Source: Bryoerythrophyllum caledonicum
Taxonomy: Eukaryota; Streptophyta; Bryopsida; Pottiales; Pottiaceae
Assembly (NCBI GenBank): GCA_963971425.1
Contig: OZ020522.1
Span: forward strand, 6,050,168 to 6,114,167
DNA: 64,000 bases
Direction: 5' to 3'
Under the pieces are notes generated by a model that was given only the letters and a program-made list of their open reading frames with translations, was not told the DNA's origin and did no database searches. The position numbers and the translations under genes were made by a program. Positions 15,181-62,660 of the stretch are shown here, one piece after another (the first letter of the stretch is position 1; every line of letters starts with the position of its first letter).

Positions 15181-15199
15181 TGTTTTAGTTAAATTAGCT

Positions 15200-16020: not shown

Positions 16021-16036
16021 TGACTATCGTTTTGTA

Positions 16037-20009: not shown

Positions 20010-20577
20010 GCCCTGGAGCTATATAGTATAGTAGAGCATGCACGCAATTTAGGTAGCAAGTACGTTAGTATAATGCAGTTTGAGATGTGTCTATCGTTTG
20101 GTGGGTGGTATATATTTATATATTGGGTGGTCCATATGATATATTTGATTTTAGAATTCCTCAGCAATAGTGTGGAATTGCTTGATTATGTATGTTTTTG
20201 CATTATAAAATACAGTGAGGTACTTTACACTGTCTTAGGAAATTGCATATAAATTTTTGTATCTCTTACACATTGTATTTGTAGTGCACTACTCTAAAAT
20301 CCTATAATAACTCATAACACATTTGTAATCTTTTTGGGCACATGATTATAATTTTGTAGCAGGATTTGCAAACTAGATTAGAAATCATATATTTTCTAAA
20401 AAAAGGTAGCAAATGTAAAAATTATATTACTGATATGAACATGAAGATGCCAATGTATGAGAAGACAAACACCAAAATTTTGATTTAAAAAAAAGTTATG
20501 AGCAAATAACTTGCGGCTTTCTACCAGCAACCAGTGCACTTGGCTAAGTGCATAATTGCTTACTTGCATGTTTTTAG
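19953..20577 (+). repeat. Right arm of the ~0.63-kb inverted duplication
   Basis: Reverse complement of 13707-14331 with few differences. It covers the last codons and 3' flank of the decayed gene and ends at GCATGTTTTTAG, where similarity stops. No target duplication is seen outside the two arms. Confidence 0.8.
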
Positions 20578-22269: not shown

Positions 22270-22510
22270 CATTGTGTTAAAAATTAACAATTCGTACAGG
22301 AGATGTCCGAGCCAGACCAATGCGTATGGTACTACACCATCTCATAGAAGTTTAGAAGAAGATCCTATGGTTCCATTATCTAAAAGTTAATCTTGGCTAT
22401 TTTTAATCAATAGAGAATAAATTCCTCTAAAATGCCTTGGTCCTTTATGGGTTAAAGGCTTAACCCCTAAAGGACCAAATGTCCATTTGGAAGACAAATT
22501 TAACCACTTT
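22270..22510 (+). repeat. Dispersed repeat containing an unoccupied relative of the MULE target site
   Basis: This copy reads AATCAATAGAGAATAAATTC then CTCTAAAATGCCTTGG without interruption. The same repeat at 38390-38552 stops at AGATTTCTCC and resumes at 62651 with AGATTTCTCCAAAATGCC. It is therefore a paralogous empty site for the 24-kb Mutator-like element. Confidence 0.75.
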
Positions 22511-37949: not shown

Positions 37950-38552
37950 CTTGGCGCTCTCTCATTCACTACAGTGATTGAATGCTGTGGCTCTGATTTC
38001 TTCAATTGCCCGCGTCAATCACGCTCCGTACTAGCACCGCCTCTACTCGCTTCGCAATACCTCGGCCATCGCCTTAGTTAATTTCACCCAAACTCAAGGG
38101 CGCCAAGAAGAGCGCAAACCACAGCCGTGCGGAAAAAAACACAAAGTGGCCGGCCTAGAACTCGTCAGCCCAGGAACCCCTTGAAAACCGCGCCATGTAC
38201 ACCTTCATAAAGTCACAGCCACGTGGCTTCATCCTGGTTGTCAAGATTAATGCGCCGTTGTTTGTAATTATGTCAGGTAGAAGCGCGCAATCCACGGCCA
38301 GGATTACCCTAAACCAGTTGGATGGACGGTCCTCAACGTTCGCAACCTCTTACAAAGGGCTCTTAGAAAAAAATACTCTGTAGTATATTTTTTTTGCCCA
38401 AAAGTGAGTAAGCTTAGTGGACTTATACCCCAATCTAAATTCACATAATTCTTTACCACACCATCTCATATAAGTTTAAAAAAAGACCTTACAGTTACAT
38501 CCTCAAAAAGTTCATATCGACAGTTTCTAATCAATAGAGTAGAGATTTCTCC
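37950..38552. other. Intergenic, ends in the repeat that is the MULE target
   Basis: No gene seen. From about 38390 to 38552 it is a copy of the repeat at 22270-22510, cut at the left target duplication of the Mutator-like element. Confidence 0.55.
38543..38552. repeat. Left 10-bp target site duplication of the MULE
   Basis: AGATTTCTCC, identical to 62651-62660. The length fits Mutator-like elements (usually 8-11 bp). Confidence 0.85.
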
Positions 38553-38582
38553 GGGGAAAGTTAGCATGCGAGCGGAGAGCGG
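38553..38582 (+). repeat. MULE left terminal inverted repeat
   Basis: GGGGAAAGTTAGC then ATGCGAGCGGAGAGCGG. The inner 17 bp are identical to the right terminus in inverse orientation. Confidence 0.8.
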
Positions 38583-39236
38583 AAAATGGAGAGCAGAAAT
38601 TTGACCTTTCACCAAATCTTTGATAGAAAAATGTACCCTATAACCGTGGAGAAATACAAAATTTAGGAAAATATTTTTAGGAATATTTTTAATAAAGGTC
38701 TGTATTTCCGTGGATTTCTAATCCCAAAACTCTCAGCTCAACTAGATTCATATTAAGCCATTAAAATTAGGGCTGACGTCATGATGATGTCATGCGTACA
38801 TCACAGTATATTTTTATGATATAAGACCTAAGTCACTTCTGTTTTATTTACATCTTTCCATGATTATACTAATCCTATCTTCTTTAAATTGTAAAAATTA
38901 CAAAAGCACAAAAAGTCCCACAACTAGACATATGACTTTGCTCCTCTGGACTTTGAATAGAAAGTAAAAACATATTTCATAGAACATGACATAATGGCTT
39001 TGAAAACTACCTGGAATATATTAAAAATCGTGTATAATAATGGTGTTGCTGAAACCAAAATTTATTCCATGTCATAGTGCTTGTCTACATCAAAAATTTC
39101 TTCGCCTTTAAAGAACATCACTTGTACCTTTTCTGTGAATCATAATCTCATATAAACCTTGTTGTAAAGATATCAACACGTCTCAGCGAAACCATTTCTA
39201 GAACTGAATCTTGCACCTGCCATAGAGCATTTTCAG

Positions 39237-39755
39237 AGATTGAGTAATTCCCTTGAGGTCATCGCCAGTGAAACCTTGCAGGATCTGCTTCACTGGATGG
39301 CGGACAGTCCTGACCCTTGGGATCTACTGGGATGTAGTAGAACACGGTGTTGGACTCCTCCACCGATAACCACATTTCAAGATGTTGAGAATGCTCGTGC
39401 TGTGTCCAAGCTTTGGAAAGGTGAGATTGACGACAGTCTTGAATATGCTTGCCTTCGGCTAGCAAAATGGGATTACGTTTCATATAGAGGAGGGCACTGG
39501 ACTCCGAAGGACGAGTATGAAGCATATTGCTTCAACGTGAACTGGAACATCTTTAAGAATTATTGGTCATTAGCAGATCCAATTAATAATAAGAGGTTAG
39601 AGACAGCGTCACTTGGCAAACTTAGTTGCTGTGAAGTAGATCAGTTGAGGTCATTGCTAAGTGACAATAGTAACCACTCTCTCTGGCTGCAGCCGAGAGA
39701 GAAGATTGCACCACGACGTGGTATCTGGGTCTCCCCTAAGAATAGGTTAGATTGA
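39237..39755 (+). CDS. Orphan exon inside the MULE, unknown function
   Basis: A 172-codon frame opens after a TTTTCAG acceptor (exon from 39237, AGA TTG AGT) and ends in TGA at 39755. The sequence is protein-like, with HWMADSPDPWDLL, SYRGGHWTPKDEYEAY and a basic C-terminus (REKIAPRRGIWVSPKNRLD). I recognise no domain. No upstream exon can be defined in the 650 bases to the MULE end. It has the same orientation as the coiled-coil gene at 40579, which starts with its own ATG. Confidence 0.45.
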   Translation, partial: RLSNSLEVIASETLQDLLHWMADSPDPWDLLGCSRTRCWTPPPITTFQDVENARAVSKLWKGEIDDSLEYACLRLAKWDYVSYRGGHWTPKDEYEAYCFNVNWNIFKNYWSLADPINNKRLETASLGKLSCCEVDQLRSLLSDNSNHSLWLQPREKIAPRRGIWVSPKNRLD

Positions 39756-40578
39756 TTTTACTATGAGAGTGGCTTAAGTCCTTTCCTAATATTTTATTTA
39801 TGTTTTATATTTTTATATTTTTTTTATTTTTGATTTTTTTTTTTCGGTTCTGATTTATTGTCTATATTTTAATTTCATTATACTAATCATTTAATACGAT
39901 TTCTTTGTTTTGCGATTTTAAATTATTAAATTCCAGTTATATGACGATTTCTTAAATTCATCTTCACCATGGCATTTTTCCAATCTTAATTAGCAGATAA
40001 TGATTTAATTCTTCATCCATTGTATCATTTTTTTCTAATTTTTTTATTTTATTTTTCCTTTTTTCTTATGTCATGTTTTATGTGTTGTTTAATGTTTTAA
40101 TGTTTCATGTTTTGATTTAGGGTCTTTATATGGACTGTTTTGAACATTTTGAACAACCGTCTTCTCCTTTATCTTTATGATTCTATGTACAAGTAACCTC
40201 GTTGAATGTAATAATTTCCAACGATAATGTCTACCTTAACTTATGAGTATCCAAGCCTGGCCAGTCCACTTCTAATGAAGGCGCCTCCTCGTTGTACAAA
40301 TGATAAATAATTTCAGACATGTCTAATGAATATAATAAATACAGTCATGTGTTTTGTGGCTGGGATCATCAGTGGTTATCATTTTGCGCCTGGGTTCTAC
40401 TTGTTGTTCACTCTCCTACAATGTCAACATGGTGATCCATCTGCAGCATTTTCTTTCAGCACTGTATCGTTGTTCAGTGGTAGTGGAAAGTGAGAAAGTT
40501 TACTGCGAAGTATTAGTTACCAAGTGTTCAAAGGTGAAGGGGGACTTCTGAGGGGGTGGCTCTGTGATAGATAAGAAG
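39756..40578. other. T-rich spacer inside the MULE
   Basis: Long T-rich runs (39790-40080) and no coding potential; probably the 3' UTR of the exon at 39237 and the promoter region of the gene at 40579. Confidence 0.5.
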
Positions 40579-41986
40579 ATGACGTCGAAGAGGAAGAAGG
40601 CGAGCAAGCAGCACAGAACTAGACACCGAAGTTCTGTGCAGGGTGCTTCTGATGTCCAAGAAGTTAGTGACGATAACACTGGAATTCGAAGTGATGGAGA
40701 GGGCGGAAGTGATTGAGTATTCAGCACAGAGGAGTTTGGCGACCCATTTGAACTCGGTGACATCGAAGAGGGGGTGCGTCAGCGGATGCTTGTTGCAGCG
40801 CCAATGCTCATGGGGCGAGATGCAGAGTATGGTAGCAAGTTCTTTACTGATGTTGTTGGGCTTTGTGATCAAGGGCCGCTTTTAAGGGATGTTTCCAAGT
40901 GCTACAGTTTCATCACAGATGAAGAAGTAACTGCTGTGTGGAAGGAGGGAGTCTCAAAGGGGCGTTACGAGTTCTCAAGGTGCGAAGATGAGGAGCAACT
41001 GAAGATGTTTGGTCAGCAGTACTTCAAGGTACGGTAATAGGCCCCATAACAACTACTTCTGTCTTCATTTTCTAAAGGCTTGCTTTGCAACTTTTATTTA
41101 TGGGAAGCCAGTGAATTGGTGTGCTGAGGCATTGGACCGACACGAAGCTCGCCTAAAGAATGCATGGCAAAATCCAACAAAACTAGGCCCAGTTGCAACT
41201 AGATGCCAAGTAGAGGGCATGTGCACGATAATCAAGGAATTATGTGGTATAGGTAGAGGTGAAGCGGGACCTGATCCTCTAGTTCATGAGCTCCAAGCAG
41301 CACTAGAACTGGAGCGCCAAAGGGCTGACGTAGTGAAGGCTGTGGAGGAGCGCCTTCACGAGATACGGCAGAAGTACAACGCTAGTCTTTAAAGGATGCG
41401 GGCTGAATCCTCTGAAATTGCAGAAGAAGATTTAAATGAGAAAAACGTTTCAAAACTTAAGGAGGCCCGGCAGATTCTACGTAGAGAGGATCCCACAGTA
41501 CAATACAAGGCAACTGTTGCAGAGTCTGAGGCATTGTACAAGGAACTGGCTGACATGCGGGAGGCTAATGCTCAAATCTGAGAGAATGTTGTTCAGTTGG
41601 AATTTGAGTTGGGTAATGAAGCTAAAGTAATGGAGGATGCCAATGCAGAGTTACTAACCTGTAAGGCAGCAGTCTCGACTGCAAGGGGGTAGATGCTTAC
41701 TCTAAAAACACCAAGAGTGTTTGAATATCCCAAGGTCCAATCTGTTCCACCTTTGGGTTATCCACGTAAAGATGCTTGTGCTTACTGTGGCTTGGGATTC
41801 GTTTGGAAAGCAGTTGTACTCTCCTCCTGTGGTTGTTTTTTGCACCCTCCCTGCGTTGCAGAAATGATGCCAGAGTTATCGATGCAAAATTTGCAAGGAT
41901 GTCCTCCTAGCCTCGTCTCCAATCCACCTTGCAGAACCATGGGTTGCCCAGTTTGGTGGCGAGTTAAACCCCCAACAAGAAATTGA
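40579..41986 (+). pseudogene. MULE-borne acidic coiled-coil/RING-like protein gene with in-frame stops
   Basis: ATG 40579; exon 1 to 41028, a 49-nt GT-AG intron (41029-41077), exon 2 41078-41986, phase 0. About 450 codons. Order: basic N-terminus (TSKRKKASKQH), acidic stretch, a globular segment (IEEGVRQRMLVAAPML, then KPVNWCAEALD), a long coiled-coil (about 41270-41680) and a C-terminal treble-clef-like cluster CAYCGLGF...CGCFLHPPC...CRTMGC (41777-41970). The layout and several short matches parallel the N-terminal half of the SET gene at 29666-35538. Four in-frame stops (TGA 40714, TAA 41390, TGA 41579, TAG 41690) and no frameshifts. A RING-like module would suggest ubiquitin or SUMO ligase activity, but this is not shown. 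Confidence 0.6.
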
Positions 41987-42553
41987 GTGTACAAGCTTCT
42001 CGGTAGTTTTGAAGGCAGCTAGTGATAGTATCAACGCACCCAAAATTATTGGAAGCAAGAGTTGACATGACCACCACAGATTACTATATAGCACTAAGGA
42101 GGCCAAGTGCTAACGGCACTTGTAACAGCAGACATATTTTATTTTTTCCTTATATCTTAGCTTAATTCTTGAAGAAATGTCATGGGCGTACTTCAGACAT
42201 AATTTGTTGTTTCACTGACTAGGGTCTCGTTAGGAATTGGAGGGAACGAAGAAAATCAAGTTAAGTGAGTTGCAAGGTTTTGAGAAGGTCCAGAGGTCAG
42301 AAAACACTTCAAAGACAATGGATTAGGTGTTGAGGCTGATAAATTGAAATTTGAGATATACTTCATGTTTGTCTTAGCCTTGTCGTTGGTAAATTCAACA
42401 ACAACATTCAAACTTCTGTGAAGAGAGTAATGCACCATATGATATATTAGGAAGACAGGATCCATAGAAGAACAATGGCCCAAGCATTCAACCAAATTAT
42501 ATAGTAGAGGACTGTACAAAGAAGTCCAAATCCATATAACTGTAAAGTCTCAT

Positions 42554-43912
42554 GGTACAAACTCGTCTTCACTCTCTGAGGCACTCACATCTAAGAAAAC
42601 TCGGGCCCTAGGATCGAATCTCTCACGGGGAGAGGAGGACGCGCTGGAGCTTTGGGAAGATTCTTCAGCCATTCAGGTTGCCAAACTTTCTGCATAACAT
42701 GGAAGCAGTAGGTCTGAGGTAGTGGGTGACCTGTATCCTCCCCAAGAGCTCATCGGACTCAGACTGCAAAACAAAGTAATGTTTAGTTCTAAATCGGATT
42801 ATGGAATGACAGATAGGAACCATGAGACTTTGACAAAAAAGGACTTACTTATAGAGGTCAATTCGATCCACGTCGGGCAAGGGTTCTTCATTGTCCAGCA
42901 TGACAGCATCAGAAGCAGTCGGGGCCGGGGCGATCTGGAGAGGCTTCAGTTCCTCCTCGTAGATTTCTGTGTCAGCCTCGAGGGCAAGAATCTGCCTGCC
43001 AGTATTCATGGCCGCTCAAATAGAAGCTCCTAAAAACAACAAACCAATGATGAAATCACATGAGAACCATATGAAAGAGCGGTATCGGATCATGGAATAA
43101 AGTATATGCAATAACTGTTCCAGCATTGAGGTCGATGACTATGCCCTCGTTGGGGCAAAGGCCAGTAATTAGCAATTGGAGGAAAGCCACTGCTTTCTCC
43201 TTTGGACCCCTCCACAGCGTCCCATCCTTCTTCACCTTGAGAGCTGAATCCTCGATGACAACATTGTGATGCAATCATCTTTTATAAGATTTACTTTTCC
43301 AAAACGTGGATTGTGTCTAATGACCAAATCCTTCGGCTGCCTCAGTGATAGATCTAAGGATCGAACCAGCAGTATTGCTTTGAACATTAGAGTCTGAAAT
43401 GCAAGGAAAACAAATGATAAGTTAATATTGGCTTTGCAATAAAAGCAGAGGTGAAGGGACAAATAGAAAGATTTGGTTGGCTTACGAATTTGGAGTGCGT
43501 GGTGGGATGAGTTAAATGCATGGAATTCACGATTGTCCAGTCATCCTTGACCTTCAGACTGTTGTTGCTAAGGTAACTCTGGATCTCCCTCTTGACCTGC
43601 GGGTTGACTGGATGAAACAAGAAGAGTGCCCCGTCGTCATGCAAGTACCCCCCGCAAAAGCCAATAACAGTTTTCAAGAAATATAGAGATTCTCCTTGAG
43701 CATCTCTGGAGCTTCAAATTTTTCGTAGTGGACTTTGATCTCCTCAAGGAAAGCCGGCATGAGATCTGGATCTGCAATTGGAAGCAACTTCTTTAGCTCC
43801 GACTGCTGACTGTCCTCCACCCTTTTCACTGCCGTAGAGACCCAGTCATCAACCAATTTTCTGGTCCATTGACGCTCCTCAGGATATTTATCGTAAAATT
43901 TTTGCGAGACTA
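42554..43912 (-). pseudogene. DNA amino-methyltransferase-like gene (permuted type), 5'-truncated
   Basis: Minus strand, convergent with the coiled-coil gene. Exon pieces: 43912-43500 (one frameshift near 43675), about 43395-43290, about 43280-43131, 43029-42849, and possible 3' exons to 42554. In order it encodes a helical lead (SQKFYDKYPEERQWTRKL), GFCGGYLHDDGALFLFHP, DDWTIVNSMHLTHP, KAILLVRS, then RGPKEKAVAFLQLL, CPNEGIVIDLNAGT, a broken junction, and AAMNTGRQILALEADTEIY. The last two match motif I (VxDxxxGxG) and the following strand ending in an acidic residue (motif II) of DNA N6A/N4C methyltransferases in the permuted order where motif IV comes first. Motif IV itself (DPPY/SPPY) should lie upstream and is missing: a foldback element replaces the 5' part. 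A TGA lies before AAMNTGRQ. Substrate and activity cannot be told. Confidence 0.6.
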
Positions 43913-43947
43913 TGGGGGTGACACTATGCCATAGTGACACTATTTGT

Positions 43948-44209
43948 GCGACACTATCGGGGTGTGCCGCTAGCGGCACACCTCTCATCACTCAAACCTT
44001 GGTTCCTAAAAGGTGCCAAGATATGAGCGATGGAAGTTGTGCCGCTAGCGGCACACTCCCATAGTGTCGCGCAATCATTCATAAGCACGACATTACGGGG
44101 GTGTGCCGCTAGCGGCACAACTTCCATCGCTCATACCTTGGCACCTTTTAGGAACCAAGGTTTGAGTGATGGGAGGTGTGCCGCTAGCGGCACACCTCCA
44201 TAGTGTCGC
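43948..44209. mobile_element. Foldback element with four perfect 16-bp palindromes
   Basis: The stretch is its own reverse complement around 44078.5 with few mismatches (arms about 125 bp). The palindrome GTGCCGCTAGCGGCAC occurs at 43964, 44039, 44103 and 44178, two per arm, placed symmetrically. Arms start with GCGACACTAT and end with its inverse. It sits exactly at the 5' break of the methyltransferase-like gene. No target duplication is evident. Non-coding. Confidence 0.8.
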
Positions 44210-44742
44210 GCAATCACTCATACTTTTTTAATCTTCACTTTTTTGTAATTTTTTTTCACTTTGTTTTTATCTTTTTTGTCACTTTTTTCTCTCTTTAACT
44301 TTCTCATTTTCTTTTACTTACGTTTTTTTCCCTCTTTTTTGTTTGTTTTTCACAGTTTCTGTCCGCGGTCATGTACGTGAAATTGTCTTGCTCCTTCCCG
44401 GTCATAAGGCCGTCTTGGAATCCTTATTTTAGATTATTTTTGGTAACATAAGTTTCAGTTCCTGTAGTCTGATTACTATCGTATAGTTTAAAAATTACTT
44501 TTATATAGTAAAAAAGTAACTTTCATATAGTGAAAAGTGACAATTTTAAAAAACTTTTTACCAACTTTTTTCTGACCGCTCACCGTTCATTGCTCATGCC
44601 TCACCGCTCACCGCTCACACCTCACCGCACGCAAGATAGCTTCATCCGGCATGCAATATTAAAGTAGTTGTTGTCACCCTAATGTAGCTTCTAGCTCTAC
44701 ACCCTATATTTTATAGGATGGACACTTGCCAGGATGTCTTGT
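44210..44742. other. MULE spacer, no gene
   Basis: T-rich to about 44340, then non-coding with a cluster of CCGCTCAC motifs (44575-44630). CTTGT at 44738-44742 is the left target duplication of the retrotransposon. Confidence 0.5.
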
Positions 44743-47277
44743 TGTAAGGCCAAAAATAGACCCCCTAAGAGAATCAATTTTTAAACCTACAAGGTCCTAA
44801 TGTTACCCACTTAACATTCCTGATGCTTATCTGTATATTCTAATTTACTGGGGCTGGATCCTTGGTTATGTCTATTTATATATTTAGATTTTAATAATAC
44901 TATTATTTTAACCCAGTCATGTGGACTCGATTGACCCTTCCTTGGAACTTAAACACTTAACTCCGGATAAATTAATTAGGTATAGGTAATTATTTACTTA
45001 TTTGTTATCTAATCGTTACGGTTATTGATTATCATGATTATTACTATTATTTTTATTTATATATATATATTTTTTTATTTTATTTTTATTTATTTTATTT
45101 TATTTTATTTTTTGGTTAATTTTTCGAGTTTAGGTCGGCTGATCAGGCCTGATCCAGATCCCGTTTTGTGGCAGCAACTTCAACAGCACTTATCTCTTGA
45201 CTCGAGACTCCGAATCCAAAAAAAATTCCTCTCACAGTGATCAGCAACTCATTTCCAACTTGAATGAACCATTTAAAACCGAATTCAGCAGGCCGAGGAC
45301 ATAGAAACCACCATCACAAGCAATTTCCATGCACCAACGATCTCAACACATCATTATGAACCAAGACGAACTTATGCATACAGGACGGAGTCAATGGGCT
45401 GCGAACTGGTTCAGTTCTGAAGGAACTTGTGGCCAAATACCTAATTCTGGCAAAAATTCGCCAGCGCTTCCGCATGAGATTCGGCCACCGGAATTTTAAC
45501 ACCTGTTCCTCGCAGCTCTCCAGCACCTTCTCTCCAGCTAGCACCGCGCGCGCCGGCTCTTGATCTCTCGCACAACAGCTCCAGCTCCCCAGACCTCGCG
45601 TGCAGCTCCACGACAACCGAGTGACGACCTCCAGCAATTCGCACCAGACTCACATTCACACGCCACCTCCTACTTCGCGCACGCAGGTGCGTACCCTCCG
45701 CGGCACTCCATCACCGAATTTCAGTTCACCAGCTCACCCTTCACAGATCGCGCGCACAGATGCGCACCACCAAAACAGAGTCTTCCAAGAGAAAACAGCT
45801 CCCCGCTCGCAGGAGCTTCTCGCTCACCCACGCCGATCCACCTCCTCGCGCAGGTACACCCTCCAGCTCGCGCAGGAGCCTCTCACACCGGAGCGCTTCA
45901 GCTTCCAGAAAAAAAACGAAGAGCGAGACCTCGCGCGCACACACGCCGATCCACCTCCTCGCGCAGGTACACCCTCCAGCTCGCGCAGGAGCCTCTCACA
46001 CCGGAGCGCTTCAGCTTCCAGAAAAAAAACGAAGAGCGAGACCTCGCGCGCACACACGCCGATCCGGCTCCAGGAGCGCTCGCACCCACCAACACGGAGA
46101 CACCTCCTCGCGCGCAGCCGGTGCGCTCACCACCAAAACCGGAAGAGCCTCTCCTCCAGCTCGCAGGAGCTTCCTCCAGCTCGCGTAGGAGCCTCTTCTC
46201 CCAAAAAAAAAAAAACGCAGAGAGGCCAACTCTCCCTCGCGCCCAGGGCGCACACCCACCAACCACAAAAAAAAAAACAAACCCAACCCAAAAAAACGAG
46301 AGCTCCAGCCCTCCCTCTTGCTCGCAGGAACTCCTCCTCGCTCCCCAAAAAACGGCCCCCGGAAATCCAGAGAACTCCAGCTCTCTCGCCAGCGACTCAG
46401 CCTGGCTGGTTCTCCTTTCTCCCTTTTTTTTTCTTTTTCTTTTGGTCTTTCTCGTTTTTCTTCCCCGACAAGACTGGCTTAGTTTAAATGAGGCAGCCCA
46501 TGACCTCTCACAGAAGTGCGGGATTGGCTACTTACAGCCGTTTTTGCATGTTTTTAGTTTATTACTAGCATTAACTCGCCGCTTTGCTCCTGACAAGCCT
46601 CCCTAAAATTAATTCCATGGTGGCAAGAATTGTCATGTGGCATGTGCATGGGGAAGCACGCCCAACCACCTTCTTTTCTTTTCTTCCTCTTTTTTTTTCT
46701 TTTCCTTTTGATCTTTTAAAGACTATTACCCTAGATCTACTACTATCTACTGATGATTTGCAATTTACTTATAACTTAAAAAACTAACCACACAGCTGGA
46801 CTCCCAGCACCCTAATTAGTCTACCTAAATTTCCCTAGCATTTTTGGAGTTCAATAAGTATTTTTCCCGAACGGTCAACCGCCGATCCACTAGTCAAACC
46901 CTAGAAATAAATAGCAATTCAACTCGGAAAATTCTAGAAATTTTACCACTACTTCTACCTGCTAGGAGACACTCTCTCAATTTTTTCCATAATTTTTGTC
47001 CCATTTCTCAATTTTTAGTCATTTTCCAAGGACCTTTCTTTCCCTTTTTTATCTTTCTCTTCATTCCCACTCCACTTCCACTACACTTTCAAGCATATTA
47101 GTAGGGAGGAGGAAAAAATAGGGAACTTAGTGTCCCATCATGGCACTAGGCCTATTAATCTAGGACTTTGACTCTAATAGGTGGATTGACTACTACTTTA
47201 ACTAAAATTGGGTCAATACTATCAAAAACTCGAAAAAACAAAGAAAAAAGAGTGAGGGCCCACTTTGGCCACTCACA
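44743..47277 (-). repeat. 3' LTR (left) of the Ty3/gypsy element
   Basis: 2535 bp, starts TGTAAGGCC and ends CACTCACA in plus-strand reading. Contains a Pro/Ser/Arg-coding C-rich low-complexity stretch and two tandem 113-bp units (45831-45943, 45944-46056). The open frames here are compositional and not genes. Confidence 0.95.
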
Positions 47278-47912
47278 CATGGCGACCATCTGGGCCGACT
47301 CGTGAGAGGAGAGTGGACCTAGACCTCTTGCTCACTACGGCACACGGTAATGAGAAAAAATAAAGAGATGTAGAAAGACAATTATGGAATTTGGAAGAAA
47401 ACTAGGAAGTTAGACATAAGTGATGGGATTGAAGAAAAGCTAGGAAATTTCAATAGAGAAGGGGGAAAAAATGAGAGAAAAATAGGGAAAATAGAGACGG
47501 CATTCGACTAGAAAGAATTGAAAGATTAGCAGAATGGATGCACGTCCCAATTTTTGAGTTAAACCCATTCGCCCTGGACGGACCCAGGTTGAATCTACAG
47601 CCAAAAAAGATTTCAAAACCGCCTTCCGCCTTCATCGGAGTGAACTTGGACTACAGAGAGATAGAAGTTCCAATCTCTTTGGAAGGTAAGGGAAGCAAGG
47701 AGAAAAATATATTTTTGATAGTAATTTGGGAGAAAAGAAAACACTTGTCTCTAGTGTAGTGATGAGACTAGTATGGTTGACCCATGGAGAAGACATGATC
47801 GGCTGCAACTAGTGGTCAAAAGGCACTAGTTGAATCAGAAGGGTCATGTCCTTCCCGTTGTGAGGCCAATTGTCACGAAGTGAGGTGGGCTAGTGATAAT
47901 GAATCCACTCTA
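47278..47912 (-). other. 3' untranslated region of the Ty3/gypsy element
   Basis: Between the polyprotein stop and the 3' LTR. On the element's coding strand the bases directly before the LTR (CCCAGATGGTCGCCATG) are not purine-rich, so the expected polypurine tract is not in the usual place. Confidence 0.5.
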
Positions 47913-53810: not shown

Positions 53811-54842
53811 CTAACGATTAAGTTGCCGTTCTTAGTTTTCTAGACCTATGTGAAGACATTTCGTAAACACCAATAATTGACTTAAAATGATTCCAAGTTT
53901 CTCCCAAACTCCCCCATGCTGGGAAGTAAACAAAACAGAAGGTTACATGTGGGGCTAACCTCCGGACGAGGTACACCCACTATGCCCCATACGATACAGA
54001 CTCTTAGTTGGGCTGACCACCTACCTGGAGGTTTCTCCTTGGTATCAAGGTATCCCCAATTTCTCTCCAAGGGATGGCATCACCAACTTAAGAGAAACGA
54101 CACCAACATGTACAAAAAATCCTTCATTGGTTCATCATAATTCATTCATTAAGAAGGGAAGAACGTACCTGGCTGCAATTCACATCCCATGTTCGATCCC
54201 TAGCCGAACCTAAGTGTCTAGTGTAGGGTTTGGTGTAGTGAGGAAGGTTTGTATACTCACCTTATGCCGCGCTCCTTCCTCACGACCCCTTCAACATGCA
54301 TATCATTCCATGTATGCAACATTCATCCCATTCAACAACCAAGGCTATTGAAAGTATGCAAGTTGCTCTTACCTTGGTGGTAGATCGAGTTCGGGGGGGA
54401 AGGGAAGGGCGCCCTTGTCCCATGCCCGGGCACATGCACCTTCCCTCTTTGGCTTAGAAGCTCACTGATTACTTTCAAGCAATCGTGGGAGGGCCTCAAC
54501 CTTTCACCCCTAAGCCCCCTTACTCAACCAAAGCACAAGAGTTAGAAGGTGGTCCGCCTAACACAATGTGCTTGTGTTAGGAGGTCGGGAATTCCACACA
54601 CCCTTCTAACTCCCCACCTCCCTTGCAACTTGGACAACACACCTCATACAGGAATACACGCACTAAAATAGGTTTAACGACTTACCTCAAGCAATAGCGC
54701 ACTCCACTCCCCACATGTGCCAAAAACCACTCAACTCACGATTTGGGTCAGAATTAGACAATTCAGAACCCTAGAAAACCTAAATTTAGCAATCCAGCGG
54801 CAAGACAAACACCTTCCAAGCAACAAACCAAACAAAAAGCTC
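53811..54842 (-). other. 5' leader of the Ty3/gypsy element
   Basis: About 1 kb between the 5' LTR/primer-binding site and the gag ATG; no conserved coding sequence seen. Presumably holds the packaging signal. Confidence 0.5.
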
Positions 54843-54860
54843 CTCCCGGCGGACGCACCA
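54843..54860 (-). promoter_or_regulatory. Primer-binding site (tRNA 3' end complement)
   Basis: Two bases inside the 5' LTR, the coding strand reads TGGTGCGTCCGCCGGGAG, complementary to a tRNA 3' end finishing ...ACGCACCA. The TGG start next to the LTR is the usual primer-binding site signature. The tRNA is not identified. Confidence 0.7.
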
Positions 54861-54862
54861 AA

Positions 54863-57397
54863 TGTAAGGCCAAAAATAGACCCCCTAAGAGAATCAATTT
54901 TTAAACCTACAAGGTCCTAATGTTACCCACTTAACATTCCTGATGCTTATCTGTATATTCTAATTTACTGGGGCTGGATCCTTGGTTATGTCTATTTATA
55001 TATTTAGAGTTTAATAATACTATTATTTTAACCCAGTCATGTGGACTCGATTGACCCTTCCTTGGAACTTAAACACTTAACTCCGGATAAATTAATTAGG
55101 TATAGGTAATTATTTACTTATTTGTTATCTAATCGTTACGGTTATTGATTATCATGATTATTACTATTATTTTTATTTATATATATATATATTTTTATTT
55201 TATTTTTATTTATTTTATTTTATTTTATTTTTTGGTTAATTTTTCGAGTTTAGGTCGGCTGATCAGGCCTGATCCAGATCCCGTTTTGTGGCAGCAACTT
55301 CAACAGCACTTATCTCTTGACTTGAGACTCCGAATCCAAAAAAAATTCCTCTCACAGTGATCAGCAACTCATTTCCAACTTGAATGAACCATTTAAAACC
55401 GAATTCAGCAGGCCGAGGACATAGAAACCACCATCACAAGCAATTTCCATGCACCAACGATCTCAACACATCATTATGAACCAAGACGAACTTATGCATA
55501 CAGGACGGAGTCAATGGGCTGCGAACTGGTTCAGTTCTGAAGGAACTTGTGGCCAAATACCTAATTCTGGCAAAAATTCGCCAGCGCTTCCGCATGAGAT
55601 TCGGCCACCGGAATTTTAACACCTGTTCCTCGCAGCTCTCCAGCACCTTCTCTCCAGCTAGCACCGCGCGCGCCGGCTCTTGATCTCTCGCACAACAGCT
55701 CCAGCTCCCCAGACCTCGCGTGCAGCTCCACGACAACCGAGTGACGACCTCCAGCAATTCGCACCAGACTCACATTCACACGCCACCTCCTACTTCGCGC
55801 ACGCAGGTGCGTACCCTCCGCGGCACTCCATCACCGAATTTCAGTTCACCAGCTCACCCTTCACAGATCGCGCGCACAGATGCGCACCACCAAAACAGAG
55901 TCTTCCAAGAGAAAACAGCTCCCCGCTCGCAGGAGCTTCTCGCTCACCCACGCCGATCCACCTCCTCGCGCAGGTACACCCTCCAGCTCGCGCAGGAGCC
56001 TCTCACACCGGAGCGCTTCAGCTTCCAGAAAAAAAACGAAGAGCGAGACCTCGCGCGCACACACGCCGATCCACCTCCTCGCGCAGGTACACCCTCCAGC
56101 TCGCGCAGGAGCCTCTCACACCGGAGCGCTTCAGCTTCCAGAAAAAAAACGAAGAGCGAGACCTCGCGCGCACACACGCCGATCCGGCTCCAGGAGCGCT
56201 CGCACCCACCAACACGGAGACACCTCCTCGCGCGCAGCCGGTGCGCTCACCACCAAAACCGGAAGAGCCTCTCCTCCAGCTCGCAGGAGCTTCCTCCAGC
56301 TCGCGTAGGAGCCTCTTCTCCCAAAAAAAAAAAAACGCAGAGAGGCCAACTCTCCCTCGCGCCCAGGGCGCACACCCACCAACCACAAAAAAAAAAACAA
56401 ACCCAACCCAAAAAAACGAGAGCTCCAGCCCTCCCTCTTGCTCGCAGGAACTCCTCCTCGCTCCCCAAAAAACGGCCCCCGGAAATCCAGAGAACTCCAG
56501 CTCTCTCGCCAGCGACTCAGCCTGGCTGGTTCTCCTTTCTCCCTTTTTTTTTCTTTTTCTTTTGGTCTTTCTCGTTTTTCTTCCCCGACAAGACTGGCTT
56601 AGTTTAAATGAGGCAGCCCATGACCTCTCACAGAAGTGCAGGATTGGCTACTTACAGCCGTTTTTGCATGTTTTTAGTTTATTACTAGCATTAACTCGCC
56701 GCTTTGCTCCTGACAAGCCTCCCTAAAATTAATTCCATGGTGGCAAGAATTGTCATGTGGCATGTGCATGGGGAAGCACGCCCAACCACCTTCTTTTCTT
56801 TTCTTCCTCTTTTTTTTTCTTTTCCTTTTGATCTTTTAAAGACTATTACCCTAGATCTACTACTATCTACTGATGATTTGCAATTTACTTATAACTTAAA
56901 AAACTAACCACACAGCTGGACTCCCAGCACCCTAATTAGTCTACCTAAATTTCCCTAGCATTTTTGGAGTTCAATAAGTATTTTTCCCGAACGGTCAACC
57001 GCCGATCCACTAGTCAAACCCTAGAAATAAATAGCAATTCAACTCGGAAAATTCTAGAAATTTTACCACTACTTCTACCTGCTAGGAGACACTCTCTCAA
57101 TTTTTTCCATAATTTTTGTCCCATTTCTCAATTTTTAGTCATTTTCCAAGGACCTTTCTTTCCCTTTTTTATCTTTCTCTTCATTCCCACTCCACTTCCA
57201 CTACACTTTCAAGCATATTAGTAGGGAGGAGGAAAAAATAGGGAACTTAGTGTCCCATCATGGCACTAGGCCTATTAATCTAGGACTTTGACTCTAATAG
57301 GTGGATTGACTACTACTTTAACTAAAATTGGGTCAATACTATCAAAAACTCGAAAAAACAAAGAAAAAAGAGTGAGGGCCCACTTTGGCCACTCACA
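54863..57397 (-). repeat. 5' LTR (right) of the Ty3/gypsy element
   Basis: 2535 bp, same ends as the left LTR, offset exactly 10120. Should hold the promoter on the minus strand. Tandem 113-bp units at 55951-56063 and 56064-56176. Confidence 0.95.
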
Positions 57398-57402
57398 CTT
57401 GT

Positions 57403-57729
57403 CATAAATAATAATGACTTACTTCCATTTCAAAACAATCACCTATTTCTAACTAGCAAAGACGGCTGATACTAATCTCAGAGAATTTTATGGACAAGTA
57501 GAATTTGCAGCATGATTTAGTAATGAGAAATGGCGGCTACCTGATAAAATTAAACTACGTGCCAGGTAGCCAACAGGATTACGTTCGTTCATTGAAGTAT
57601 CGTCGAGAATGCATTCAGAACTACCTGATCTATTGGATCGCATAAATTGATGATCGTCCATGCAACATTCCTCTCATTCTAGGTTATCAAATTCCTTACG
57701 CAATTTCCATTCGCGCCCCACTATCAGTG
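57403..57729 (+). other. Presumed 5' flank of the MULE transposase gene
   Basis: MULE sequence between the retrotransposon's right target duplication and the transposase ATG; no coding sequence recognised. The insertion sits about 330 bp upstream of the start, so it may have separated the gene from its promoter. Confidence 0.45.
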
Positions 57730-59862
57730 ATGGCGCAGCTCCCTGCAGAGAGAATGTTAGGTATGGCCGTACTCCGAGCTCAAGGCGTTGGCATCCCACT
57801 TACAGTACGTGTAGATGATGATGGGTTGGCAACAGTTACGGCGCTTTGCCTCAGCCTTAGATTCCACTTCACAGAGGATACTATTAGTATTGAGGAGGAG
57901 ATATACGACGATGAGACCTCACAGGTTATGCATACAGATGATCAGCTTTCAGAAAGAGACGATGACAATACTGTGTTTTGGAATCTCTATCCCGGTAGGT
58001 ATAGAGTATACGGTCTCACAGATTCTCAGATGCAGGCATCCACGGAGATTCTAACTCCCCGTCGTTCCTCTACATGTACTGTTCAGACTTCACTTCCTCG
58101 TGACGTGAAGGTTAAAGTAGAGCCTAGCCTGGAAACTCCTGTTGCAACGCCAGTCATATCTCTCTCCTCAGACGAGGAAACTAGTCCTATGAAATCAACC
58201 CCTCATGTTCCAAAACAAACTATAGATTCCAGGCCGCCGGTTGCGCTTCCAGTTAAATGTCCCACTCCCTCTCAATCTTCAAAGGTGGAGACTGTTAGTC
58301 TAGTCCCATTGCTTTGCAAACTTGCCGAGAGACCAGGGAAGAAAAACATTCTGAAAAAAATAGACTACTCATTCATTAGACACGAGAGAGTTGAGTACTT
58401 GCCTGCAGTGTTTGATGGTGCAGTTATTTTTGAGTTGCCCCCAGCTGGTGAAGGAGCCTCAAGGTCGCAAGCAAAGTCTATGCAAGGAATGGACAAGCGA
58501 TACGACGGCCACGTGTGGACCAAGACCATCACCACCAACATCACAAACGACTTTGGCCTCTCATTTCGCTATTCTATCTGCGTTGGATGGCTGCGTTGCA
58601 ACAACAAGGAGTGCCCATTTGTGGAACGCCGACCTCGTATTTATCAAGTTAACGAGACTGAGTTTGAAGGTTGTACCCTCCAAGCTTTTACAGTGGACCA
58701 GCCACCCCCATCCAAATCTACACTTGTATGCAAGGTATGCAAAGAACTCCCAGCATGCATCGCTACATGTGGAGCTAAAATTTATTATGTGGCTGGCAAA
58801 GTCAACCAGACCAGAGCGTGTATCCATCTAGGATCTCACGATCACCCAGTCAAGGTTGGCGACTACAGAGACACAAAGGCCGAGATCAGTAGCTTGATAG
58901 AAGAACAGGTTGAGAAGACTCCCCGAGCAACGAAGAGTTCAGTGGTGTTGGAGGCGAGCAAGGTTCTAATCGGCAACTACCTACTGCAGCCTGAGGAGGC
59001 ACCTCCAAAGAAGCTGAGCATGGAGGAGCTTGTTCCTGTACTTGATCGTTGCAAGGACATGGCATCCCTAAACATCCGCAACAAGGTAATGACTTTCCGG
59101 CGGTTGAGAATGTACGGTGTCATGGATGCTATCACTAAGCTACGTGGAATCAGTTTATGGGCCTTCGTCCCGGAGAACAAATTTCCAGGTCAAGGGGCTG
59201 ATCACGACAAGGTATTTGTATTCAAAATGTCGGAAGTCGGGCCAGGTAGTGGGGTCGACTTGGTGAGAAGAATGCAGCCCGGCGGAGATCTCGAGAATGC
59301 CTGGCTGATGTTCGACCATGTTAAACGGGTAAGACAGTGGACCACGATGGCATGCCATGTGTACGACTCAACCTACTGCCGTGTCATGACCATTGCTAGC
59401 TGTGATATGCAATCTGAGGACTGTGAGGCCCAAATCTTTTTCTGGAAAAACCTTAATCTTGTCATGGAGAATAATGGCGTTGTAGCGCCAAACTTCAAGG
59501 GATTCATGGCCGACAGCGCTAAGGCCAACTGGAATGCAGTTCGGATCATCTACGGCAATGGGAAGAAGGAAGACCGTATGGAGGACCGGGAGAGGACCTG
59601 CCAGTTTCACTGGACGCAATCGATGGTCAAGTATACGGAGAAGTACATCCCCGAAGAGCTTTGGGAACAACACAAAAAAATGTGCCACCAGTATAGGACA
59701 ACGAAGACTATGGACGAAGCGGATAGTCTGTACCACGAGTTGCAAGCCTGGTGGGTTTCCGCTGGAGCTGTCACTGAGAAGGCCCTAAGCAAACTGGAGC
59801 TCTGGCTTGCATTCTGGCACTTCCGCTATCGCCAATGGAGAGGATTCATGACTGGGGTATGA
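57730..59862 (+). CDS. MULE transposase, N-terminal and catalytic part
   Basis: ATG at 57730 (the GTG before it is not needed). About 710 codons to TGA 59860. The N-terminal ~200 residues are acidic and Ser/Thr-rich with a SUMO-interacting-type motif (PVISLSSDEE, near residue 140). A Cys-rich DNA-binding-like region follows (CNNKECPF, CKVCKEL, HLGSHDHPVK). The catalytic core has YDSTYCRVMTIAS (first Asp near residue 546), FMADSAKANWNAV (second Asp near 595) and CQFHW (near 624), the D...D...CxxH order of Mutator-like transposases. It acts in the nucleus to cut the element at its terminal inverted repeats. The reading frame is free of lesions up to its end; continuation into 59936-61453 needs a junction I could not place. 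Confidence 0.85.
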   Translation: MAQLPAERMLGMAVLRAQGVGIPLTVRVDDDGLATVTALCLSLRFHFTEDTISIEEEIYDDETSQVMHTDDQLSERDDDNTVFWNLYPGRYRVYGLTDSQMQASTEILTPRRSSTCTVQTSLPRDVKVKVEPSLETPVATPVISLSSDEETSPMKSTPHVPKQTIDSRPPVALPVKCPTPSQSSKVETVSLVPLLCKLAERPGKKNILKKIDYSFIRHERVEYLPAVFDGAVIFELPPAGEGASRSQAKSMQGMDKRYDGHVWTKTITTNITNDFGLSFRYSICVGWLRCNNKECPFVERRPRIYQVNETEFEGCTLQAFTVDQPPPSKSTLVCKVCKELPACIATCGAKIYYVAGKVNQTRACIHLGSHDHPVKVGDYRDTKAEISSLIEEQVEKTPRATKSSVVLEASKVLIGNYLLQPEEAPPKKLSMEELVPVLDRCKDMASLNIRNKVMTFRRLRMYGVMDAITKLRGISLWAFVPENKFPGQGADHDKVFVFKMSEVGPGSGVDLVRRMQPGGDLENAWLMFDHVKRVRQWTTMACHVYDSTYCRVMTIASCDMQSEDCEAQIFFWKNLNLVMENNGVVAPNFKGFMADSAKANWNAVRIIYGNGKKEDRMEDRERTCQFHWTQSMVKYTEKYIPEELWEQHKKMCHQYRTTKTMDEADSLYHELQAWWVSAGAVTEKALSKLELWLAFWHFRYRQWRGFMTGV

Positions 59863-59935
59863 TATTTTCTAACTCATTTAACTCTTTTTTTTTCCCTAGC
59901 AAATCCGACCCTAAACAAAGTTGTAACAGATCTAA

Positions 59936-61453
59936 CCGGTTCACCCTGGTACTTTGCAAAAATTTACTGATGAAGAACTTGCAGAAATGCCTTCATGTAA
60001 CCTTGCGGAAACGATTCACAACAAGTGGCTTCAAGCTTCTGGAAACAAGGGCGGCGACCTCTACGTGGCTACAGTGGACGACTTTGTTCGGGGATTTCTA
60101 CAAGTTGTCAATTTCTACCAGTTTCTGAAAGGTGACGTAGGAGGAACGGGTCCATCAAAGAAGGAACAGAAACTAAGGATGGCAGAACGAAGGGCAAAGC
60201 TCACGGGGAATCCTATAGTGCTTGAAGACCCCATGTTAGAGATGCCTGGAGCAGAAGAGTTCTGCACGCGTCAGCCTTGCATGGCTAGAGAAGAAGTTTT
60301 TGGGTCCATCAAGCGGAAGGCCGACCTACCTCTTGGAGCTGAGGAAGAGTCACATCGTCCGGATAAGATAAACTTCTCTTATCCAAGAGGTACAGGACGT
60401 GCTGTGAGGGCTCGCATTGTGCAGATGCCCATCATTTTGGAAGATGCTACCGAAGATGATACTGAGGTACAAGAAGATCATCCTGCAGCATCGGAGGCTG
60501 TGACTACCCTGGTGTCCCCAACAAACGAGATGGGAATTCGCCATGTGAATGCAGTTGAAGAGACCAAGGTAAACGTTAAGGAGTGGCACATTTCAAGACT
60601 TCCCAAGACTTCTGCAAAGTGCTGTTGGGACCAGAGAGCTGTCACCAAGAAGAAGTGTACTGAGAGAATTGTCAGGGGCGCTAATTCTACCGCAGCACCT
60701 ACCTACATTGGAGTTTGGACTAACATACGCAGGAACATATCAGAGAGGACGAAATTCTTCTTCTGCTCCGATGACATTGAGAGGTGCGTGAAGGGCTTCA
60801 GACGCAAGTGGATTGCTCGGTACTCAAAGGACCAGGAGATGCCTCCGATTCCAGACGTTTGGCCAGTGAAGCTAGGAACAAACCTGAAGCTCACAGAAAT
60901 CCTTGCACTTGAAGCGGCTGGATTCCAACTCCCACAGAAGAAGCCGGTCTCCCCAAGACGCCTCTTCTCCTCTGCCCCGCCACCTGCAAATCTGAGTTCG
61001 CTGCCAGTCCCTGCAGAGGCTGACCGCTACCCTGGTAAGAGAGACGGCAAGATGGTCAAACGCACTGCAACTCGCCCTAATCCGGCTCATCGACTCTCCA
61101 TGGGCTCCTCCGACTCCCTCAAAGCTCGCCTCCGTTCTGTCACCATGATCCCTCATCCAGGCCATGGTTGTTTCATCGGGCTAGATTCAGGCGTTGCTCC
61201 TACCATCACACAGTACCAGATCACCATCAGCTCTTACCCTGGTTGCACTTGCCCTGCATTTAGGAAGACTATGACTAAGTTCCGAGGGAGGACTCAATTC
61301 TCCTACTGCAAGCATGTGTACTTCATCCTCTTGAAGGTCTGCAACCGTGATCGTGACGCCGACCTTTTCATCCACGCGCCTACCTTTAGCTTCAACGAGG
61401 TCAAGCTAGTCCTAGAAAGCGGAATCTTGACTCACCCTTTGGCAAAAAAGTAG
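59936..61453 (+). CDS. MULE transposase, C-terminal part with SWIM zinc finger
   Basis: Frame open from 59936 to TAG 61453, about 500 codons; protein-like from QKFTDEELAEMPSCNLAETI (near 59954), a motif that normally follows the catalytic core in these proteins. Near the end is a SWIM finger, CTCPAF...FSYCKHV (61244-61314), the C-x-C...C-x-H layout typical of MULE transposases. Between the halves (59857-59899) there is a GTATGA donor and a polypyrimidine-CCCTAG acceptor, but three stops follow that acceptor in the required frame. The gene is therefore either broken here or spliced differently. A basic, Pro-rich stretch (61050-61150) may help nuclear import. Confidence 0.75.
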   Translation, partial: PVHPGTLQKFTDEELAEMPSCNLAETIHNKWLQASGNKGGDLYVATVDDFVRGFLQVVNFYQFLKGDVGGTGPSKKEQKLRMAERRAKLTGNPIVLEDPMLEMPGAEEFCTRQPCMAREEVFGSIKRKADLPLGAEEESHRPDKINFSYPRGTGRAVRARIVQMPIILEDATEDDTEVQEDHPAASEAVTTLVSPTNEMGIRHVNAVEETKVNVKEWHISRLPKTSAKCCWDQRAVTKKKCTERIVRGANSTAAPTYIGVWTNIRRNISERTKFFFCSDDIERCVKGFRRKWIARYSKDQEMPPIPDVWPVKLGTNLKLTEILALEAAGFQLPQKKPVSPRRLFSSAPPPANLSSLPVPAEADRYPGKRDGKMVKRTATRPNPAHRLSMGSSDSLKARLRSVTMIPHPGHGCFIGLDSGVAPTITQYQITISSYPGCTCPAFRKTMTKFRGRTQFSYCKHVYFILLKVCNRDRDADLFIHAPTFSFNEVKLVLESGILTHPLAKK

Positions 61454-61712
61454 GAGGCAGACTACTTCCAGTCACGGTTTTTCACAGGTGACGGTGGTCA
61501 TTGGGATTGCTTAGTCATTGGTTTTTGAATTATTCCTTGTACTGAGTCAGCAATACAAATTTCGTATTGTCTTTTTCAATATAAAGGTTTTGTCATTGAC
61601 ATTGATTGCATTGTGTAAGAATAGCTTCCACCTAGGACAAGTGCACTGTGAACCTCGTATCCACTGACGGATGCACTTTATTACTGCCAATCAATACTAG
61701 TTAATAGTCATT
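61454..61712. other. Convergent 3' flanks inside the MULE
   Basis: Short AT-rich interval between the transposase stop and the stop of the minus-strand gene; presumably two 3' UTRs. Confidence 0.5.
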
Positions 61713-62165
61713 TTATTGTTTGAACTTAATGCGTTTAGGTTTGCCCCTTGCATTTTCAGCATAACTACCAACCCCCGGCTGTACTACAGGACAAGCTACA
61801 TTCACGTCCATTTTTGGTCCCACACTTGGCATTTGTCCTAGGTGGGAACGTTTCAACAATGGCCCACCTCCACTCATCCCTCTAAGTGCTTTCCTAGAAT
61901 AAGTTCCCGATGGGATCTTTCCAACCTTGGAGTATATATGCGGTGGCAGCGGCACATCCGCCTCGTCGTCAAGCACTATGATCTCACTTGAATCTTCTAC
62001 AACTGAAGGGTCTCCTCTCAAATCTGATCTTACATCTACGTCCACCATCACAATAAGCCCTTGGCTGAAGGCCTTCACCTCCTCCTCCTCCTCGACCTCC
62101 AGATATGGTTGAAATGGGCCAACAACGTCACCAAGTGATACAGCAATAACCCCGACGTCCGCCAT
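61713..62165 (-). CDS. Small acidic protein with SUMO-interacting-type motif, MULE-borne
   Basis: Intact 150-codon ORF, ATG at 62165, stop at 61713, convergent with the transposase. I do not recognise a family. It has an acidic run (EVEEEEEV), a hydrophobic-acidic motif SEIIVLDDEAD that fits SUMO-interacting motifs (I/V-I/V-x-L/I next to acids), a Gly/Ser-rich middle and a basic C-terminus (RGKPKRIKFKQ) that could be a nuclear localisation signal. Its place near the right end suggests an accessory factor of transposition, such as one recruiting sumoylated chromatin proteins. It has no predicted membrane segment or signal peptide. Confidence 0.55.
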   Translation of the reverse strand: MADVGVIAVSLGDVVGPFQPYLEVEEEEEVKAFSQGLIVMVDVDVRSDLRGDPSVVEDSSEIIVLDDEADVPLPPHIYSKVGKIPSGTYSRKALRGMSGGGPLLKRSHLGQMPSVGPKMDVNVACPVVQPGVGSYAENARGKPKRIKFKQ

Positions 62166-62570
62166 AATCGTAGCCCGCTTCTACAGAGACCTGTTTCTTA
62201 AAAAAAAAATCGAAAAAAAGAAAGAGACTATCCATAGCCCAAGCTTAAATATCCATAAAGAAGGTGCTTGGCGCCCTTGAAAACCGGCCATTAAACAGCT
62301 TTCATCCTGCAGAAGAGAATGAAAATTTATATGAACTATTTTATATTACGTCAACCTATTCTATTGGAACAGCAATATTGAAAAAAATAGCACGGTAATA
62401 GGAAAAAATATAGCTTATTTCCACTATAGTATCTAAAAGGTCCACCGTTATAGGCCCACAATAAATTACTAAAAAAGTAAAATTCCAAGGATATTCTAAG
62501 AATATTCGAATCTTCTAATTTTAGTAATAAAAAGTCTATATTTGAATTCAAGTCTCTTTTCTCTGCTCCC

Positions 62571-62650
62571 CGCTCTCCAAATCTCCGGTCACCGCTCTCC
62601 GCTCTCCAAATCTCCGGTCACCGCTCTCCGCTCGCATACAAGTCTCGTCC
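62571..62650 (-). repeat. MULE right terminal inverted repeat with 29-bp subterminal repeats
   Basis: 62621-62650 is the 30-bp terminus. Just inside, a 29-bp unit (CGCTCTCCAAATCTCCGGTC...) is repeated twice at 62571-62628 and merges into the terminus. Such repeats are likely transposase-binding sites. Confidence 0.75.
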
Positions 62651-62660
62651 AGATTTCTCC
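62651..62660. repeat. Right 10-bp target site duplication of the MULE
   Basis: AGATTTCTCC, identical to 38543-38552, followed by AAAATGCCTTGG as in the related unoccupied repeat near 22.43 kb. Confidence 0.85.

What the first reader, a model, noticed from the sequence alone, without database searches (positions are those of the whole stretch)
38553..62650. A 24-kb Mutator-like element carrying methyltransferase-like, RING-like and SIM-type genes
Seen: matching 30-bp inverted ends, a perfect 10-bp target duplication, and a related unoccupied site at 22.42 kb, with a MULE transposase inside. Known: plant MULEs can carry cellular gene parts, including ULP-type SUMO proteases. Inferred: the coiled-coil/RING-like gene, the DNA methyltransferase-like gene and the SIM protein are stable cargo of a MULE lineage, a combination I do not know as described.
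Basis: partly seen in the sequence, partly recalled or inferred. Interest (0 to 1): 0.92.

Follow-up and report, generated by a model that had tools for sequence, protein, structure and literature searches.

The report
Jumping gene with a methyltransferase-like partner
The stretch is one copy of a recently multiplied jumping DNA element whose wider family carries, beside its jumping enzyme, a protein resembling bacterial DNA-modifying enzymes but with an altered active site; this copy's version is broken.

Summary
Confirmed: 38553-62650 is one transposon insertion (10-bp target duplication, matching ends, related empty site), later split by a 12.7-kb Ty3/gypsy element. In the window's own genome I fetched 20 of 22 other left-end hits. 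All 13 read at both ends have their own 10-bp duplications (10 perfect, 3 with 9/10); 18 of 20 cross the gypsy site without the gypsy. The genes do travel with it.

Correction: in the main amplified subfamily the coiled-coil/RING and methyltransferase-like genes carry shared lesions. Of the 20, two "long" copies keep fuller versions.

Stronger than proposed: the methyltransferase-like gene is an old partner of this transposase. Among relatives (paired transposases 56-60% identical) 17 transposase/methyltransferase-like pairs were found, all divergent, 5.5-9.3 kb apart, about 0.14 expected; 12 of 17 methyltransferase-like stretches lack stops. The long-form partner also has a DGNHR (ParB/DndB-like) domain, also seen in one relative.

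ParB-methyltransferase accessory proteins are already reported from algal transposons (PMC12477816), so the kind is known. Apparently new: the Mutator-like setting, and a catalytic motif reading E/Q-x-P-D instead of DPPY in three families. Function is inferred.

The parts
38543..38552 (.). left copy of 10-bp target duplication AGATTTCTCC
62651..62660 (.). right copy of the 10-bp target duplication
38553..38582 (+). left terminal inverted repeat; exact start confirmed by other copies
62621..62650 (-). right terminal inverted repeat, with 29-bp subterminal repeats inward (62549-62635)
39168..39755 (+). ORF of 195 aa, in the main subfamily (L021 and L027 lack 38988-39722); neutral (omega 0.94 among copies), probably a captured or chance fragment
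40582..42032 (+). coiled-coil/RING-like gene (exons about 40582-41028 and 41078-42032), broken by in-frame stops, three of them shared by the scored main-subfamily copies
42731..43904 (-). relic of the methyltransferase-like gene: motif I end and a middle segment remain; the DGNHR domain and motif IV region of the long copies are missing
43944..44222 (.). palindromic repeat array (about 139-bp units, copy number varies between copies), in place of the 5' part of the methyltransferase-like gene kept by the long copies; not a separate MITE
44572..44624 (-). internal repeats resembling the terminal motif (AGCGGTGAGCGG), between the two divergent genes
44743..57397 (-). later Ty3/gypsy LTR element, TSD CTTGT at 44738-44742 and 57398-57402; absent from the 18 fetched copies that cross this junction
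57733..59862 (+). transposase, first open frame (708 aa used as query, SIM-like VISLSSDEE), divergent to the methyltransferase-like gene; omega 0.36
59936..61453 (+). transposase, second open frame (505 aa, weak SWIM hit); in the copies whose longest frame here is 505 aa it begins at the same place
61713..62165 (-). small protein with SIM-type motif EIIVLDDE, open
22330..22455 (+). related unoccupied site: a diverged copy of the flanking repeat

Best explanation
The stretch is a dead or nearly dead copy of a Mutator-like DNA transposon family that recently multiplied. The wider clade is built around a divergent gene pair: a transposase, and a protein with a fold like beta-class N6/N4 DNA methyltransferases, accompanied in the long copies and in at least one relative family by a DGNHR (ParB/DndB-like) domain. 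Most likely this partner is an element-specific DNA-binding factor that helps the element be transcribed or transposed, or escape silencing, in the way VANC proteins help VANDAL MULEs. Because its catalytic motif IV is changed in the three families seen, it more likely binds than methylates. Shown: the element, its copies, the repeated divergent pairing, the DGNHR domain beside the methyltransferase part in two families, and the motif change. Inferred: that they form one protein, DNA binding, an anti-silencing or transposition role, and loss of catalysis. The window's subfamily multiplied although its own partner gene and RING gene were already broken, so they must be dispensable in cis or supplied in trans.
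For: Copies, duplications and shared interior. Seventeen transposase/methyltransferase-like pairs, all divergent, about 0.14 expected under uniform placement (from hits; 40 and 51 loci outside the family listed by hand); 12 of the 17 methyltransferase-like stretches have no stop. Methyltransferase similarity: Pfam N6_N4_Mtase E 3e-5 and 1.3e-4; hhalign to phage N6-methyltransferases E 4e-6 to 5e-6 over 60-61 C-terminal columns, and in the extended alignment DLVIAELPDG lies on DAIVTDPPYG. Motif in the three families: DLVIAELPDG, DLVIAEIPDG, DLVLAQVPDN. DGNHR domain in the long copies and upstream of the family 2 ORF (43.6% identity, E 1e-9); 150 matches among 150 scored of 1749 first-look candidates. 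Transposase frame 1 omega 0.36 against each long copy.
Against: No expression or binding data. Pfam gives no MULE transposase hit at E 0.1 and the structure model was too poor to use (mean pLDDT 38.6). The N6_N4_Mtase hits are below Pfam's cut-off and cover only the C-terminal part; the two relatives' ORFs alone gave no methylase hit; the PDB gave methyltransferases only at E 1.1-1.4 and none for the profile. No ParB hit in Pfam; DndB only at E 0.2. The motif IV alignment is low-confidence, and L021 reads ELPGG there. The 17 pairs come from a few families and are not independent; 23 of 40 transposase and 34 of 51 methyltransferase-like loci had no listed partner (lists are cut short). SIM-protein selection is unclear (omega 0.43 and 1.97 against the two long copies).
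Confidence: 0.5

Rival explanations
1. The partner is an active N4C or N6A DNA methyltransferase that uses an unusual motif IV and marks its own transposon, as suggested for the Ectocarpus Sola1 protein.
For: SAM-binding motif I is recognisable (DLNAGTG, DATAGVG) with GR-x-I-x-A-[LM]-E following. PMC12477816 proposes self-modification for a similar protein.
Against: The motif IV catalytic residues DPPY read E/Q-x-P-D in the three families compared.
Confidence: 0.25
2. The extra genes are passengers captured by chance, as in Pack-MULEs, with no role.
For: In the window's subfamily the RING and methyltransferase-like genes are broken, and gene 1 and the RING exon between the stops evolve neutrally among copies (omega 0.94 and 1.02).
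Against: Seventeen divergent pairs in relatives, 12 of them without stops in the methyltransferase-like stretch, and many DGNHR matches without stops.
Confidence: 0.12
3. The element belongs to another DNA transposon superfamily with SWIM-type transposases (for example KDZ/Zisupton), not to MULEs.
For: No Pfam MULE hit; SWIM is not unique to MULEs (recalled).
Against: 10-bp target duplications in 14 copies including the window's fit the 8-11 bp listed for MULE clades in PMC6446971 (passages) and not the 8 bp that I recall for Zisupton.
Confidence: 0.13

Closest known systems
ParB-like plus N4C/N6A methyltransferase accessory protein of Ectocarpus Sola1-1_Ec32 (PMC12477816; [quoted passage not shown]
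   Same: ParB-like or DGNHR domain with an N6/N4 methyltransferase-like fold, gene on the strand opposite to the transposase.
   Different: There Sola1, here a Mutator-like element with 10-bp duplications; here motif IV is changed. Sequences were not compared.
VANDAL MULEs with VANC (Arabidopsis)
   Same: MULE with an extra protein beside the transposase; the proposed role is similar.
   Different: VANC is not described as a methyltransferase in the passages seen; no anti-silencing shown here.
KAONASHI/KIU MULEs with ULP-like genes
   Same: MULEs with a long-kept extra gene linked to SUMO biology.
   Different: No ULP protease was recognised here; only SIM-type motifs.
Retrotransposons with cytosine methyltransferases (PMC5890265, abstract start seen)
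   Same: Mobile element carrying a DNA methyltransferase gene.
   Different: C5 enzymes in retrotransposons; here an N6/N4-type fold in a DNA transposon.
MULE-Phytophthora_1 (SET domain in 14 members) and Ghost (RING ORF) in PMC6446971
   Same: MULEs with chromatin-type or RING extra ORFs.
   Different: Different hosts and genes; not compared by sequence.

Membership tests
Mutator-like elements (MULE) | 8-11 bp target site duplication | tested here: met
   10 bp in the window and in 13 of 13 fetched copies read at both ends (10 perfect, 3 with 9/10):
Mutator-like elements (MULE) | terminal inverted repeats | tested here: met
   about 30 bp, inner 17 bp identical:
Mutator-like elements (MULE) | MULE transposase (DDE core with C2H, often SWIM) | tested here: inconclusive
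   no Pfam MULE hit, SWIM 13.9 bits below cut-off; structure model unusable; motifs read by eye from recall
Beta-class N6/N4 DNA methyltransferase | SAM motif I at the C-terminal side | tested here: met
   (Pfam E 3e-5 to 1.3e-4, below its cut-off; hhalign E 4e-6 to 5e-6)
Beta-class N6/N4 DNA methyltransferase | catalytic motif IV [DNS]PP[YFW] | tested here: not met
   ELPDG, EIPDG, QVPDN at the aligned place; that part of the alignment is low-confidence
ParB/DGQHR-methyltransferase transposon accessory protein | ParB-like domain fused upstream | tested here: inconclusive
   DGNHR domain in the long copies and family 2 but no ParB Pfam hit, DndB E 0.2; fusion by splicing not shown
RING finger proteins | RING zinc ligands recognised by profile | tested here: inconclusive
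   C..C...C.C..H..C...C..C read by eye in L027; no Pfam RING hit. The window cluster B gene does hit zf-RING_16, E 1.2e-6
VANC anti-silencing proteins | loss of DNA methylation on related elements | not testable with these tools
   no methylation data

The most novel reading that the evidence does not exclude
A whole clade of Mutator-like transposons, with more than a thousand first-look candidate loci in one genome, keeps a bacterial-type ParB/DGQHR plus DNA methyltransferase fusion whose active site has been rewritten. It would be a methyltransferase turned element-specific DNA-binding cofactor that defends or mobilises the transposon.
Probability: 0.35. Interest if true: 0.78.

Novelty: new variant of a known kind. 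Interest (0 to 1): 0.6.

Why it matters
ParB-methyltransferase accessory proteins have been noted in algal transposons and proposed to write marks on their own element. Here the pairing recurs across a few diverged families of one Mutator-like clade, and the catalytic motif is changed. That makes a simple question testable: do transposons use these proteins as enzymes or as DNA-binding anti-silencing factors? The natural contrast between the amplified subfamily (partner broken) and relatives (partner open) is a ready experiment in one genome.

Tried and rejected
Rejected readings. (1) The palindrome at 43944-44213 is not a MITE insertion: the 16 fetched main-subfamily copies read across that place have a variable array there. 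(2) A shared CX4C spacing between the RING ends of the window copy and of cluster B was an artefact of a frame shift private to the window copy among those scored. (3) The cluster B gene as a relative of the element's RING gene: shuffles supported it, but it is not among the 139 rows of the genome search (90 of 256 candidates scored), so it stays unproven. (4) The Sdh5 hit of one methyltransferase-gene exon is below cut-off and was dropped. (5) The structure model of the transposase core was too poor to search. (6) No terminal repeats were found for cluster B. (7) The idea that cargo decayed faster only after insertion was replaced by the shared-lesion result. (8) Relatives of the transposase in the viral and prokaryote collections: none. 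(9) The SIM reading frame in one count was mis-set; those numbers were not used. (10) The transposase frame break at about 59860-59935 could not be joined by an intron in frame; unsolved.

Full report
Observation. The 10-bp duplication, the ends and the related empty site are all in the sequence. The end repeat is strong only in its inner 17 bases. A Ty3/gypsy element, 44743-57397 with duplication CTTGT and 4 of 2,535 LTR positions differing, split the element later. Without it the element is about 11.4 kb.

Copies. The window lies in an unnamed 437-Mb genome of 894 contigs. A 201-bp left-end query gave 48 rows (40 of 132 candidates scored, so a lower bound): 23 left ends including the window's own, 17 rows of the flanking repeat alone, 8 second pieces of the same ends. 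I fetched 20 of the 22 others. Sixteen run through 44742 straight into 57398 without the gypsy, and the two long copies L021 and L027 do so as well. L016 and L025 do not reach that junction in the fetched 10 kb. Not all sixteen are complete: L009 lacks 39550-42852 and has an insert in the transposase; L012 and L018 have deletions in the transposase. Thirteen copies were read at both ends: 10 perfect 10-bp duplications (L028 if its left end is one base short) and 3 with 9 of 10 (L010, L015, L021). Mean pairwise identity within the main subfamily is 97.8-97.9%; to the long copies 95.2-96.1%. The main burst is therefore younger than that split.

State of the genes. In the later RING exon the same three stops occur in 17 of 18 scored rows (window plus 16 copies); L027 lacks them, with damage of its own; L009, L021 and L025 were not scored. 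Compared with the long copies, the main subfamily lacks about 2.2 kb inside the methyltransferase-like gene and its 5' part; a palindromic array stands there instead. Of 13 rows, transposase frame 1 is free of stops and frame shifts in 5 and frame 2 in 6. Frame 1 shows omega 0.36 against each long copy and 0.45 among copies; frame 2 0.80, 0.58 and 0.51; first RING exon 0.55, 0.57 and 0.58; RING exon before the stops 0.42 (L027) and 0.89; between the stops 0.87, 0.77 and 1.02; gene 1 0.94 among copies; SIM protein 0.43, 1.97 and 0.52; methyltransferase fragments 0.13-1.28 on small counts. These are simple counts without error bars.

The methyltransferase-like protein. In the window relic the C-terminal part reaches Pfam N6_N4_Mtase at E 3e-5, below cut-off. 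At a loose limit 729 phage records match; 18 of the 20 listed lie in annotated methyltransferases or methylases, lowest listed E 8e-7. The L027 version gives E 1.3e-4. Three families aligned share DLV-x-A-x-x-P-D, LHDDG, WRG-x-KE and D-x-x-A. hhalign matches the C-terminal 60-61 columns to phage N6-methyltransferases at E 4e-6 to 5e-6; in the extended alignment DLVIAELPDG lies on DAIVTDPPYG, at low confidence. Against: L021 reads ELPGG; the two relatives' ORFs alone gave no methylase hit in Pfam; the profile found no methyltransferase in the PDB and the single protein only at E 1.1-1.4.

A conserved pair. The transposase query scored 63 of 3253 candidates; the methyltransferase query 119 of 2471. 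I listed by hand 40 transposase and 51 methyltransferase loci outside the window's family. Within 15 kb there are 17 pairs, all divergent, about 0.14 expected under uniform placement. The paired transposases are 56-60% identical to the window's; 12 of the 17 methyltransferase-like stretches have no stop. The gaps fall near 5.5, 6.2 and 9 kb, so the pairs stand for a few families. The rest (23 and 34 loci) had no listed partner, which says little because both lists are cut short. Three related transposase loci without stops have single frames of 1076-1268 aa. Upstream of the family 2 methyltransferase ORF lies a domain 43.6% identical to the DGNHR domain of the long copies; the genome search with that domain scored 150 of 1749 candidates, all matching, of which 2 are the long copies. 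I did not cross-match those 150 with the other lists.

The RING protein. Its query gave 139 rows (90 of 256 candidates scored); of 57 loci outside the family that I listed, 1 lies within 15 kb of a listed transposase and 0 of a listed methyltransferase. It is thus a family of its own. A gene in window cluster B (33.6-35.5 kb) looked like a distant member (RING part 0 of 1000 shuffles reach the score, whole protein 3 of 500, N-half 7 of 1000, done before the frame shift in the window copy was known), but it is not among those 139 rows.

Literature. [quoted passage not shown] PMC6446971 (passages) lists MULE clades, SWIM, SET and RING cases. PMC13317346 (passages) describes VANC and KIU. PMC5890265 was seen only in listings with the abstract's start. 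The listed results of my searches showed no Mutator-like element with such a protein, but they cover open-licence papers only and I read passages of three.

Mechanism and verdict. The best reading is a Mutator-like clade with a divergent partner gene whose product binds the element's DNA, with methylation lost or changed. Binding, anti-silencing and the trans supply to the amplified subfamily are inference. The host's identity is not known; a plant-like host is suggested only by the SUVR-like SET gene and gypsy type as I recall them.

Noticed in passing
window 29700-31100, minus: A split gene with Pre-SET (E 2.7e-4, below cut-off) and SET (E 4.8e-8) domains, resembling plant SUVR histone methyltransferases (recalled), close to a RING/coiled-coil gene and a possible transposase (24.3-29 kb): a second gene-rich cluster without recognised ends.
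   Followed up: partly
window 33600-35538, minus: Coiled-coil gene with zf-RING_16 (E 1.2e-6), interrupted by a 350-bp foldback insert; possible but unproven relative of the element's RING gene.
   Followed up: partly
window 13707-20577: Two 627-bp inverted repeats, 99% complementary, enclose 5.6 kb with open frames of no known family and a run of N: likely a young long-TIR transposon.
   Followed up: no
window 112-5568: Long open frames with reverse transcriptase-like and RNase H-like reading of a non-LTR retrotransposon (by eye).
   Followed up: no
window 43944-44222 and other copies: Palindromic array of variable copy number between the two divergent genes of the main subfamily; its origin and role are unexplained.
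   Followed up: partly
window 59857-59940: Frame break between the two transposase frames, also seen in other copies, while three related loci have one frame of 1076-1268 aa; intron, frameshifting or inherited lesion unresolved.
   Followed up: partly
L046 1569-7425: Next to a RING relative at C11:1220787: open frames with an NGQHN motif, and an NIF-type phosphatase domain (E 2.6e-17).
   Followed up: no
G000: Five divergent pairs and one tandem pair of RING relatives 6-13 kb apart, as if some elements carry two RING genes.
   Followed up: no
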